DNA of 64,000 nucleotides from Tuwongella immobilis. GTDB lineage: Bacteria; Planctomycetota; Planctomycetia; Gemmatales; Gemmataceae. The position numbers and the translations under genes were made by a program. Below are positions 3,270-61,889 of the stretch, in pieces. The notes beneath the pieces are model-generated. The model was not told where the DNA came from. It did not search any database and saw only the letters and a list, made by a program, of their open reading frames with translations. Location: the NCBI RefSeq assembly GCF_901538355.1, contig NZ_LR593887.1:3820920-3884919 (forward strand). The letters are read 5' to 3'. The stretch's first letter is position 1. Each line of letters starts with the position of its first letter.

Positions 3270-4253
3270 TCACACGCGCTTCCAGCCGGGGGGATACTCA
3301 ACACGCCAGCCCCCCGCACCGGCGACGCGGTGCGTGCCGACATGAATTCGCCCGCCGACTTCGAGCCAATCGACCAATTCCGGCGCGATGGGGCCCAGCG
3401 TCGCCGTGCCCAAGATCCCTTCGACTTCCCAACGATTCCCCGTGCGATGCGACGATTTCACCTGCCGAAAAAGCGACCAATTCGCTTCCACTGTCGGCAC
3501 TTGCATCGCCGCCGATTTGAGCAGTGGGAAGGTCGACTGCGGCACCGGCTCGCCCAGATCGCGAGCCAGCATGCCGACCGTGCGAAGGGTGGCGCGTAGC
3601 AGATCGGCACAACTGGGATTCGTGAGCAATTGCCGATTGCGCTGATTCGCGTGGCTTCGCAGCACCAGCGGCGAGGTGAGATGAACGCGAACCCATGGAA
3701 TCGGCGGACGAGCGGGGTCGATTTCATCGGGCAAATGCATCGGAAAGAGTCGATCGGCGGGCGATTCGCCCTGGGGCAATTCGAGATTGAACAAGATGCG
3801 ATCGTCGCCCAACCCCAGCAATAAATCGCGTCCTCCGGCTTGGAGCGCGTCCCAGAATGCCTGCGAATGCTGGCTCGCGGTCATTCCCAGAAATCGCACT
3901 TGGATCGGCAGAATCTCGCCAATCACGGCTCGATCCGGTGCGGGAAAAGCCGGGGCGATGACCAATGGTCGGGCGCGATCCCGACTGCCGCGAAATTCGT
4001 CGGGGATCGGTTCGCCGTCGGGTTCAAACAGTTCGCCGAAGGCACAGCCGCCCATGAGCGGACATCCCCGGCAATTCCGCCACAGGGTATCTTGCAATGG
4101 GAGTGGTTGGCGACAGGTGGCCGCTCGCAGCCGGCCGCCTGCAAGTCCACGAATGGCAGGCCCGATCCAGGCATTCAGCCGCCCCGCTCGGGCGAATCGC
4201 AAGTGGCGAGTCGATTCCAGCATCCAGAATCGCGGCGTTTTCGACAGGGGCAT
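3270..4253 (-). CDS. Orphan Cas6-like RAMP protein (pre-crRNA endoribonuclease family)
   Basis: A 327-residue protein with the layout of the Cas6 RAMP family, whose members cleave CRISPR precursor RNA. The N-terminal half has the strand-helix start ending in GPAIRGLAGGRL, a cysteine cluster of the C-x2-CP-x4-CxFGxLFE kind (residues about 66-80), and the conserved segment around EILPIQVRFLG. The C-terminal half contains VRVHLTSPLVLRS, RQVKSSHRTGNRWEVEGILG, and the glycine-rich finish GGRIHVGTHRVAGAGGW, matching the family's LHVGK-x-T-x-FGLG-x-Y. No other cas gene and no CRISPR array was found in the window, so substrate and role are open. ATG at 4253 is used; an in-frame TTG at 4262 would add three residues. 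A divergent ECF sigma gene starts 216 bp away. The family call is fairly firm, the function is not. Confidence 0.72.
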   Translation of the reverse strand: MPLSKTPRFWMLESTRHLRFARAGRLNAWIGPAIRGLAGGRLRAATCRQPLPLQDTLWRNCRGCPLMGGCAFGELFEPDGEPIPDEFRGSRDRARPLVIAPAFPAPDRAVIGEILPIQVRFLGMTASQHSQAFWDALQAGGRDLLLGLGDDRILFNLELPQGESPADRLFPMHLPDEIDPARPPIPWVRVHLTSPLVLRSHANQRNRQLLTNPSCADLLRATLRTVGMLARDLGEPVPQSTFPLLKSAAMQVPTVEANWSLFRQVKSSHRTGNRWEVEGILGTATLGPIAPELVDWLEVGGRIHVGTHRVAGAGGWRVEYPPGWKRV

Positions 4254-4469
4254 ACGGTGCAATCCACGGAGAGGGATGATTCACAACGATCTAAAGTGCA
4301 TACGCCAATCGGGTGGATTTGTGACGGCTTTTTCAAATCGCCGCCGAACGGGGATCATTCCGTCTTCCGAACAGATTTTCCTGCACAAAACTGGAACAAT
4401 TCGGTAGATTGTCTTTCGGAAATCGCCAATGAAGGGAGAGGTTCCCTACGGAATCAAGCTGAGATAGCT

Positions 4470-13462: not shown

Positions 13463-13466
13463 GAAG

Positions 13467-13537
13467 CTACCCGACTAGGATTCGAACCTAGACGAAGTGG
13501 ACCAAAACCACTTGTGCTACCGTTACACTATCGGGTA
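13467..13537 (-). tRNA. tRNA-Gln (anticodon UUG), distal copy
   Basis: The minus strand folds into a complete cloverleaf of 71 bases: acceptor TACCCGA/TCGGGTA, D-stem GTGT/GCAC, anticodon stem AGTGG/CCACT with loop TTTTGGT (anticodon TTG), T-stem CTAGG/CCTAG with loop TTCGAAT, discriminator G. CCA is not encoded. It is base-for-base identical to the copy at 13587-13657, from which it is separated by 49 bases. Confidence 0.97.
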
Positions 13538-13586
13538 AATATTCAGATTATTCAGTCGACATCATCCATCAGAAAACAAACCCAAA

Positions 13587-13657
13587 CTACCCGACTAGGA
13601 TTCGAACCTAGACGAAGTGGACCAAAACCACTTGTGCTACCGTTACACTATCGGGTA
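13587..13657 (-). tRNA. tRNA-Gln (anticodon UUG), proximal copy overlapping rex
   Basis: Identical to the copy at 13467-13537 with the same cloverleaf and UUG anticodon. Its 5' fifteen bases (13643-13657) are also the last codons and stop codon of rex, so the first transcribed unit downstream of rex is this tRNA. RNase P cleavage of a joint transcript would remove the rex 3' end. CCA is not encoded. Confidence 0.97.
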
Positions 13658-14386
13658 AATATCTGCTAATGTATTCTCGTCTTCACCGAGGTGAACTCGG
13701 AAGGCAAGCTGTTCAAGTTGGATGGTGAAGTCCACCGAGACCAACTGAATGTTGCTAGGCATTTTGAGAACCGTGGGAGCAAAGTTCAGCACACCGCGAA
13801 TTCCCGTGCTAGCGAGGCGATCCACAATTCCCTGAGCAGCATTAGCAGGCACTGTCAGGATTGCAAGTCGGATTGCCTCTGTTTCTATAGTAGCAGGCAT
13901 TTCCTGGAGCGACAAGACCTTTTGGCCATCTACTTCCGAGCCAATTTTTTGCGTGTCGCTGTCGAATAAGCCAACAATTTCGAAGCCGCGTGCGTGAAAT
14001 CCGCGGTATCGCAGCAATGCCCGAGCGAGGTTGCCAATCCCGATGAGAGCGGCTCGCCACGTCCGGTCGATCCCCAGCGATTCACGGATCGCACGAATGA
14101 GATCAACGATGGTATAACCAATCCCACGCTTGCCAAGACTTCCCAATTGTGAAAGATCTTTTCGCACCTGAGAATCGGTAATTCCCAAGGTTTCTGCGAG
14201 ATCGCTACTCGAAATTTTCGTCTGACCTTCTCGCAGTCGGCTTTCGAGGCAGCGAAGATACAGACTGAGTCGCCCGGCGGTTGCGCGGGAGATCCGTTCT
14301 TCACGATGTTCGGGCGGTTCGTTCACCGAAGGCCCCTTCTCGATTGCTGCATGGAAAACCGTCTCCGCGGAACCGACGTAACGCAT
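13643..14386 (-). CDS. rex: Redox-sensing transcriptional repressor Rex
   Basis: A 247-residue Rex-family repressor that senses the NADH/NAD+ ratio and leaves its operators when NADH is high. The winged-helix domain covers about residues 34-105 (ISRATAGRLSLYLRCLE, then ISSSDLAETLGITDSQVRKDLSQLG, then GKRGIGY). The Rossmann domain begins with ALIGIGNLARAL (113-124) and includes GLFDSD and RLAILTVPA; GVLNFAP is a typical late motif. ATG 14386 comes one base after the stop of the DUF1573 gene, so translation is probably coupled; a GTG at 14326 behind GAAGGGG is an alternative that would remove 20 non-conserved residues. The final codons and TAA stop lie inside the tRNA-Gln gene. No clear Rex operator was found nearby. 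Confidence 0.93.
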   Translation of the reverse strand: MRYVGSAETVFHAAIEKGPSVNEPPEHREERISRATAGRLSLYLRCLESRLREGQTKISSSDLAETLGITDSQVRKDLSQLGSLGKRGIGYTIVDLIRAIRESLGIDRTWRAALIGIGNLARALLRYRGFHARGFEIVGLFDSDTQKIGSEVDGQKVLSLQEMPATIETEAIRLAILTVPANAAQGIVDRLASTGIRGVLNFAPTVLKMPSNIQLVSVDFTIQLEQLAFRVHLGEDENTLADIYPIV

Positions 14387-60800: not shown

Positions 60801-61889
60801 AAACTACAATCCACGCTTCAACTTGCGGCCAATCAACCGCGCTCGAAGCCGACGATTCCGACTCCGCCACCGCTCCCCACGACGCGCCCGACACCACCGA
60901 TGCCGACGCCGACGCCGCCGACTCCCAAGCCGATGCCGGTCCCAGTGCCAGTGCCGAAAACGACGCCAACGCCGCCACCACTGCCGATGACGCCGCCACC
61001 GTTGCCGAAGCCGGTGATCCCGCCCCCCGTCCCCAAGTCGATCCCGACGCCGACACCGACACCGACACCCAAGCCGGTCGTGCCGCCGCCATTGCCGCAA
61101 ACACCGCCGCCATTACCCAAGACAATGCCCGCGCCGACGCCATCGCCGAAGCCGGTCGTGCCGCCCCCATTGCCGATGACTCCGCCGCCGCTTCCGAAGA
61201 CGGTTCCGCCCCCGGTGCCGACACCGACTCCGACGCCGAAGCCGGTGCCGCCGCCATTGCCGAAGGCCAATCCAATGCCCAAGGCGATTCCGACTCCGAC
61301 GCCCACACCGACGCCCAAGCCGGTCGTGCCGCCGCCGTTGCCACAAACACCGCCGCCATTGCCCAAGACGATGCCTGCGCCGAAGCCAGTGGTGCCGCCC
61401 CCATTGCCGATGACGCCGCCACCGTTGCCGAAAGCGACTCCGACTCCGACTCCAACTCCGAAGCCAACGGTTCCACCGCCGTTGCCGATGACGCCGCCAC
61501 CGGTTCCGATGCCCACGCCGAAACCGATGACACCGCCGCCACTTCCGACGGTGCCACCACCGTTGCCGAAAGCGACGCCACAGCCGAAACCGCCGGTGCC
61601 GAAATCGCCGGATACTTCGACGCTCGAAGCACGGGCTACCGCATTGACATCTTCCGGGAGTTATGCCGAGGCCAAACGGGTCTGGCAGGCGGTGCAGTCG
61701 CAGGCTCCGCAGCATCCGACGGCCGCGAAACGGGTTCAGTTTGTCGATCTGTTGGCGACGGCTGCCGGGCAGTTGAAGTCCGGGAATCGGCCAGCAGCAA
61801 CGGCCAGCGCTCAGGCCGCGCTGCAATTGTTTCCCGGTGATGCGGCCGCTCAGGGGCTACTCAACCAAGCGAAGACCGGGAAAAAGTAG
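57861..61889 (+). CDS. Giant lipoprotein with two CsgG-like domains and a proline-rich repeat region
   Basis: A 1342-residue protein. An N-terminal signal ends in AWGC (Cys21), a lipobox-like site. Helical TPR-like sequence follows (about 85-310). Two CsgG/TolB-like segments are seen: VGDFEVAANLGFPLNGKQIGEELL plus FDLVERSQLQAIAQELKL (about 313-415), and IVHFAEFSPSPPLPPMIGAVTADQL plus HDVIERSQVYWYMGRLGF (about 577-693). A long Gln/Ala/Glu/Arg coiled coil (about 763-947) leads to a proline/threonine/lysine repeat (about 993-1250) and a short TPR-like tail. It is probably anchored in the envelope; CsgG relatives form export pores, but this is not shown here. The gene stands alone after the SIS gene. 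Confidence 0.82.
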   Translation: MMQSWIRPLLGLALAISAWGCGDAAPRPKPQAVSETAPTILVGNPTDPGTIPVGNPPVALLPGNGSAPVTAGSTQSLSNYFPNSDIQISPLQQYETLLSQAVALLNERRDADALTALQQAQAIQDTELVRQEIQGIQQRLARRNGAAQTLKHLQAVLQVGRAEEASRLANDALLQYGDSDFAGDFVALKRQADAILSVQQQNQQRRLQQLIAEADAALSAKNYRTAATSFDQALALGADAAVQARAAQVRTTLERYDSLRTRADELRKHPDTLDEALTAYESAAQVWDTVQLRQDIEAVRLALSSRRERLAVGDFEVAANLGFPLNGKQIGEELLPTFKPQFDLVERSQLQAIAQELKLASAEFGDLGGARDAFARMTRARYLVVGSISALDGWTARARLIDLSNGLIVQTGKIVAPTPSDLVRRLPQLGRMLMLNDDQRLALEQQLLRDSVRVQPIVVAPIPPPPPVELPQPPPPVIVHATTPPVLDALSWDDFRTIPLGEAPPEPVVLSPVDVDRQRALRIAVELGDNMLARGQVAAATKHFQFALSIEPDRNDLRVRLDRCGPVRPLPPVIRPRMAIVHFAEFSPSPPLPPMIGAVTADQLAPYFTATHDVIERSQVYWYMGRLGFSLRDIIVDPMKRLLLARSMGVRYLLVGGIRSISVRPPHTEMEVSTHLIDAEYGIRVGTAAVQVSSATALRFALPELARQTLLSERDRRQWQREAEAYQAILMEIDRLDRQANYTAALVMVDRALTIRPDSVEVLAFRDRIRQHQRQAALEIARRQAWELEQQRIREAQIRAALLAQQAEAARREAELQAARFAAAEQQRIADQRARAAEGLLIQARLAGKRGDVTIALNLFESANGIAPSATVRAEMQRLRDEAAARDVARQQAEIQARQQAIAQRQAEEAARARAMILEQQRQREAAELARQQAFEQQQANEITSLLRVADREIALGRYERAISALQTARGIRPNADVERKLQSTLQLAANQPRSKPTIPTPPPLPTTRPTPPMPTPTPPTPKPMPVPVPVPKTTPTPPPLPMTPPPLPKPVIPPPVPKSIPTPTPTPTPKPVVPPPLPQTPPPLPKTMPAPTPSPKPVVPPPLPMTPPPLPKTVPPPVPTPTPTPKPVPPPLPKANPMPKAIPTPTPTPTPKPVVPPPLPQTPPPLPKTMPAPKPVVPPPLPMTPPPLPKATPTPTPTPKPTVPPPLPMTPPPVPMPTPKPMTPPPLPTVPPPLPKATPQPKPPVPKSPDTSTLEARATALTSSGSYAEAKRVWQAVQSQAPQHPTAAKRVQFVDLLATAAGQLKSGNRPAATASAQAALQLFPGDAAAQGLLNQAKTGKK
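60840..61610 (+). repeat. Degenerate Pro-rich coding repeat region
   Basis: About 770 bases inside the giant lipoprotein gene made of variants of CCG/CCA/ACG-rich units that encode TPTPTPKPVVPPPLPQTPPPLPKTMPAP-like sequence; that block appears twice almost unchanged, near 61045-61135 and 61290-61380. The opposite strand gives long Gly-rich frames that are only the reverse reading of this repeat. The region is prone to slippage and to assembly errors. Confidence 0.85.

What the first reader, a model, noticed from the sequence alone, without database searches (positions are those of the whole stretch)
3270..4253. Orphan Cas6-like RAMP gene without CRISPR array or cas neighbours
The protein has the two-part RAMP layout with the cysteine cluster and the glycine-rich C-terminal loop of Cas6, yet the surrounding 64 kb hold no array and no other cas gene. 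It stands between a sulfatase and an ECF sigma factor. It may process CRISPR RNA from a distant array in trans, or cut a cellular RNA.
Basis: partly seen in the sequence, partly recalled or inferred. Interest (0 to 1): 0.72.

Follow-up and report, generated by a model that had tools for sequence, protein, structure and literature searches.

The report
Stand-alone Cas6 serving distant CRISPR arrays
The gene is a real, apparently intact Cas6 that most likely cuts CRISPR transcripts made elsewhere on the same chromosome, where three arrays and a type III-B CRISPR system without a cas6 of its own are found; this scattered layout is already known, so the finding is ordinary.

Summary
The 327-330 aa gene on the minus strand at 3270-4253/4262 is a genuine Cas6. 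It passes the Pfam Cas6 cut-off, matches a PADLOC Cas6 profile over its full length (1.6e-32), and its AlphaFold model (pLDDT 90) matches solved Cas6 structures best (Z 19.5). The window holds no array or other cas gene, but the gene is not an orphan in its genome. The 6.69 Mb chromosome also carries a full type III-B cmr1-6 + csx1 operon lacking cas6, a type I-G locus, a Cas6-RT-Cas1 fusion with a 23-repeat array, a second Cas6 beside a 9-repeat array, and a lone 16-repeat array. The lone array's repeat has the same short hairpin and ATTGAAAC end as the 9-repeat array. The closest relative (G006, 49% identical) sits within about 20 kb of a Cas10/RAMP effector operon, array and RT/Cas1. Best explanation: a dispersed cas6 that processes pre-crRNA in trans for the Cmr complex. 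The 16-repeat array is its likeliest partner, but that pairing is inferred. Supply of crRNA in trans to cas6-less type III-B systems is published. New member of a known kind; low interest.

The parts
3270..4262 (-). cas6 gene; ATG start at 4253 (327 aa) or TTG at 4262 (330 aa), stop 3270-3272
   Evidence: ORF list; Pfam, PADLOC; fold
3312..3686 (-). region of the Pfam Cas6 C-terminal match (residues 193-317)
3306..3353 (-). glycine-rich C-terminal loop (residues 304-319), with invariant G304, G309, R312, G315, G317
   Evidence: alignment A1
4044..4115 (-). cysteine cluster C50, C64, C67, C73 (probable metal site, inferred)
   Evidence: alignment A1: C50, C67, C73 invariant, C64 nearly so

Best explanation
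The gene encodes a Cas6 pre-crRNA endoribonuclease whose gene lies apart from the rest of a dispersed type III-B CRISPR system. It most likely binds the repeat hairpin of transcripts from arrays elsewhere on the chromosome and cuts about 8 nt before the repeat's end, leaving an ATTGAAAC tag. The crRNAs would then load onto the Cmr complex encoded at about 2.05 Mb. Its likeliest substrate is the 16-repeat array at about 480 kb, which has no cas6 beside it and whose repeat has the same GAGC/GCTC stem, 7-nt loop and ATTGAAAC end as the 839 kb array. Shown: family, fold, genomic inventory, repeat similarity. Inferred: cleavage activity, substrate choice, hand-over to Cmr.
For: Cas6 by profile and fold. 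G000 holds three Cas6 genes. A cmr1-6 + csx1 operon has no cas6 in it. Arrays lie at 480, 839 and 4370 kb. The 4370 kb array sits beside a Cas6-RT-Cas1 fusion and has a different 35-nt repeat; the 480 and 839 kb repeats share hairpin and end. The window Cas6 groups with G006 and G022 (97/94 support), not with the 838 kb paralogue. In G006 the cas6 lies within about 20 kb of Cas10, RAMPs, a 59-repeat array and RT/Cas1. Other relatives sit beside CARF-Lon, Csx1, Cas1/Cas2 or Cas10 genes.
Against: A second Cas6 at 838 kb could process both related repeats, so the window copy may be redundant. No invariant histidine exists in the family, so catalytic residues could not be checked. No expression or cleavage data. 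G127, a genome in which no type III effector was detected, keeps a related Cas6.
Confidence: 0.8

Rival explanations
1. Redundant or decaying copy: the Cas6 at 838 kb processes both related arrays and the window gene is a leftover of an earlier type III locus with little present role.
For: Two Cas6 genes for two arrays with the same hairpin and end; no array near the window gene.
Against: The frame is intact and keeps every residue invariant in the family; the predicted fold is confident. No sister-species copy was available to measure selection on this gene.
Confidence: 0.13
2. Cellular role: the protein has left CRISPR and cuts a host RNA, perhaps in regulation.
For: In G127 and G143 related genes sit in a shared housekeeping neighbourhood without nearby cas genes; G127 has no detected Cas10 or RAMP though it has a type I-G-like locus.
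Against: G143 does have a type III-D-like Cas10 and Csm3-like gene elsewhere; both are draft assemblies at 94% completeness; most relatives sit beside CRISPR or cOA-effector genes; G000 itself has arrays and Cmr.
Confidence: 0.04
3. Another RAMP protein (Cas5, Cas7 or similar), not Cas6.
For: RAMP folds resemble one another; Csm3 and Cmr chains also appear lower in the structural list.
Against: Cas6 chains fill the top of the list, up to Z 19.5 over about 220-250 residues, against about 10 over about 140 residues for Csm3; Pfam and PADLOC name Cas6 only.
Confidence: 0.02

Closest known systems
Stand-alone Cas6 endoribonuclease (Pfam PF10040; PDB 4ill; Thermus TTHB231, PDB 4c9d)
   Same: Two-domain RAMP fold over residues 10-326, Gly-rich C-terminal loop
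   Different: Only 12-16% identical; adds a four-cysteine cluster; catalytic residues not assigned
Type III-B systems that use crRNA made elsewhere in the genome (Marinomonas mediterranea, PMC5576922)
   Same: Cmr operon without cas6, crRNA supplied from other loci
   Different: There the donor system is type I-F with Cas6f; here the cas6 is a separate gene far from every array found
Cas6-RT-Cas1 fusion (PDB 6dd5, 7kfu)
   Same: Cas6 fold; one such fusion exists in this genome
   Different: The window protein has no RT or Cas1 part

Membership tests
Cas6 (PF10040) | Profile match above the curated cut-off | tested here: met
   26.6 bits against 25; PADLOC Cas6 1.6e-32
Cas6 (PF10040) | Two RRM/RAMP domains in the Cas6 arrangement | tested here: met
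   AlphaFold pLDDT 90; best match Cas6 4ill, Z 19.5, rmsd 3.5, 249 residues
Cas6 (PF10040) | Glycine-rich loop before the last strand | tested here: met
   Residues 304-319, invariant glycines; last strand 319-322 in the model
Cas6 (PF10040) | Catalytic residues, often a histidine | tested here: inconclusive
   No invariant histidine in 14 homologues; catalytic residues are known to differ among Cas6 proteins (PMC6452270)
Cas6 (PF10040) | Cleaves CRISPR repeat RNA | not testable with these tools
   Needs an assay
Type III-B CRISPR system | cmr operon with Cas10 in the same genome | tested here: met
   L011 cmr1-6 and csx1
Type III-B CRISPR system | cas6 encoded next to the cmr operon or an array (usual, not required) | tested here: not met
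   Window gene is about 1.8 Mb from cmr and far from every array found; many type III-B systems lack cas6 (PMC5576922)

The most novel reading that the evidence does not exclude
A branch of planctomycete Cas6 proteins, kept in genomes without a matching effector such as G127, has been recruited to cut a cellular RNA, and the window gene shares that role.
Probability: 0.04. Interest if true: 0.7.

Novelty: new member of a known kind. Interest (0 to 1): 0.18.

Why it matters
It shows that a cas gene that looks orphaned in a 64 kb window can belong to a CRISPR system scattered over a whole chromosome, and that local context alone is a poor guide. The genome, with three Cas6 genes, three arrays and one cas6-less Cmr operon, would be a usable case for asking which Cas6 serves which repeat. 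It does not reveal a new kind of system.

Tried and rejected
Repeat remnants near the gene: best matches to the three repeats were no better than in shuffled sequence. Sequence search of solved structures: no Cas6 match with the protein or with the family profile; only the fold comparison linked it. NCBIfam gave no match over cut-off. I first read G127 and G143 as genomes without CRISPR; two searches showed a type III-D-like Cas10 and Csm3-like gene in G143, whose Cas10 hit had looked like a mere cyclase at 3.6e-8, and one search showed a type I-G-like locus in G127, so that reading was dropped. A dN/dS test of G127 against G143 failed because synonymous sites are saturated. The window's species was not identified.

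Full report
What is there. The window has an open frame on the minus strand, 3270-4262, 330 aa from TTG or 327 aa from the ATG at 4253. It passes Pfam's cut-off for CRISPR_Cas6 (26.6 bits against 25) and matches a PADLOC Cas6 profile from residue 19 to 322 at 1.6e-32. An AlphaFold model from 14 homologues has mean pLDDT 90. Its best solved matches are Cas6 chains: Foldseek 4ill, 4.8e-12; VIA-align Z 19.5, rmsd 3.5, over 249 residues.

Surroundings. A sulfatase and an ECF sigma factor flank the gene. The window and the 20 kb to its left have no CRISPR-like array and no recognisable repeat remnant. The genome-wide Cas1, RAMP and Cas10 hits all lie outside the window.

The rest of the genome. The window is G000:C1:3820920-3884919 of a single 6.69 Mb contig. 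Elsewhere on it lie: a cmr1-6 operon with a Csx1-like CARF-HEPN gene at about 2.05 Mb, without cas6 in the operon; a type I-G locus with cas3, cas8g, cas7g, the cas5-cas6 fusion and cas4-cas1 at about 1.43 Mb; a Cas6-RT-Cas1 fusion and a 23-repeat array at about 4.37 Mb; a Cas6 with a 9-repeat array at about 838 kb; and a 16-repeat array at about 480 kb. No Cas6, Cas1, RAMP or Cas10 hit of the genome falls near the 480 kb array; three of its neighbouring frames were profiled and are CobW, an HNH-domain frame and an FG-GAP repeat protein.

Which array. The 480 kb repeat (GGCGCAGTCCGCACGAGCGATTAGAGCTCATTGAAAC) and the 839 kb repeat (GTCACAGACCTAACGAGCGCACAGAGCTCATTGAAAC) are both predicted to fold into a GAGC/GCTC stem with a 7-nt loop before ATTGAAAC. 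The 4370 kb repeat is 35 nt and folds differently. That makes the 480 kb array, which lacks a cas6 neighbour, the likeliest partner of the window gene, but the 838 kb Cas6 could serve it too. This pairing is inference.

Relatives. In a tree the window protein groups with those of G006 and G022 (97/94) and not with its 838 kb paralogue. In G006 the gene lies within about 20 kb of Cas10 and RAMP genes, a 59-repeat array, RT and Cas1, and beside a TIR-domain gene. In G022 it is beside a Csx1-like gene and a SAVED-domain gene, with Cas10 on another contig. More distant relatives stand beside CARF-Lon genes, Cas1/Cas2 or Cas10 operons. G127 and G143 have the gene in a shared housekeeping neighbourhood. 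G143 has a type III-D-like Cas10 elsewhere; in G127, a draft assembly, only a type I-G-like locus was found.

Mechanism. From established Cas6 biochemistry (own knowledge), the protein should bind the repeat hairpin and cut the pre-crRNA about 8 nt upstream of the repeat end, and the crRNA would pass to Cmr. Family and fold are shown; activity, substrate and hand-over are inferred. The family has no invariant histidine, which does not argue against activity because Cas6 proteins use different catalytic residues (PMC6452270).

Comparison. Many type III-B systems lack cas6 and adaptation genes and share crRNAs with other systems (PMC5576922). Cas6 is also described as one of the 'attractor' genes around which effector modules are exchanged (PMC6452270). 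The window gene fits these known patterns. Verdict: real Cas6, locally alone, most likely working in trans; new member of a known kind, interest 0.18.

Noticed in passing
L009:9429-12482 (G000 about 4.37 Mb): Cas6-RT-Cas1 fusion of 1017 aa followed by a Cas2-like 91 aa frame (L009:12479-12754, not profiled) and a 23-repeat array.
   Followed up: partly
L013 (G000 about 1.43 Mb): Type I-G operon with cas4-cas1 and a Cas2-like frame but no array found within the 20 kb read.
   Followed up: partly
L034, L048, L049, L051, L052: A CARF-Lon gene stands next to or near cas6 in several planctomycete relatives.
   Followed up: partly
L030:10354-11460 and L031:806-1363: TIR-domain gene beside cas6 in G006 and SAVED-domain gene beside cas6 in G022.
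   Followed up: partly
window 13464-13662: Two nearly identical 79-nt copies 120 nt apart that look like duplicated tRNA genes.
   Followed up: no
window 60931-61589: Diverged repeat block inside a long open frame.
   Followed up: no
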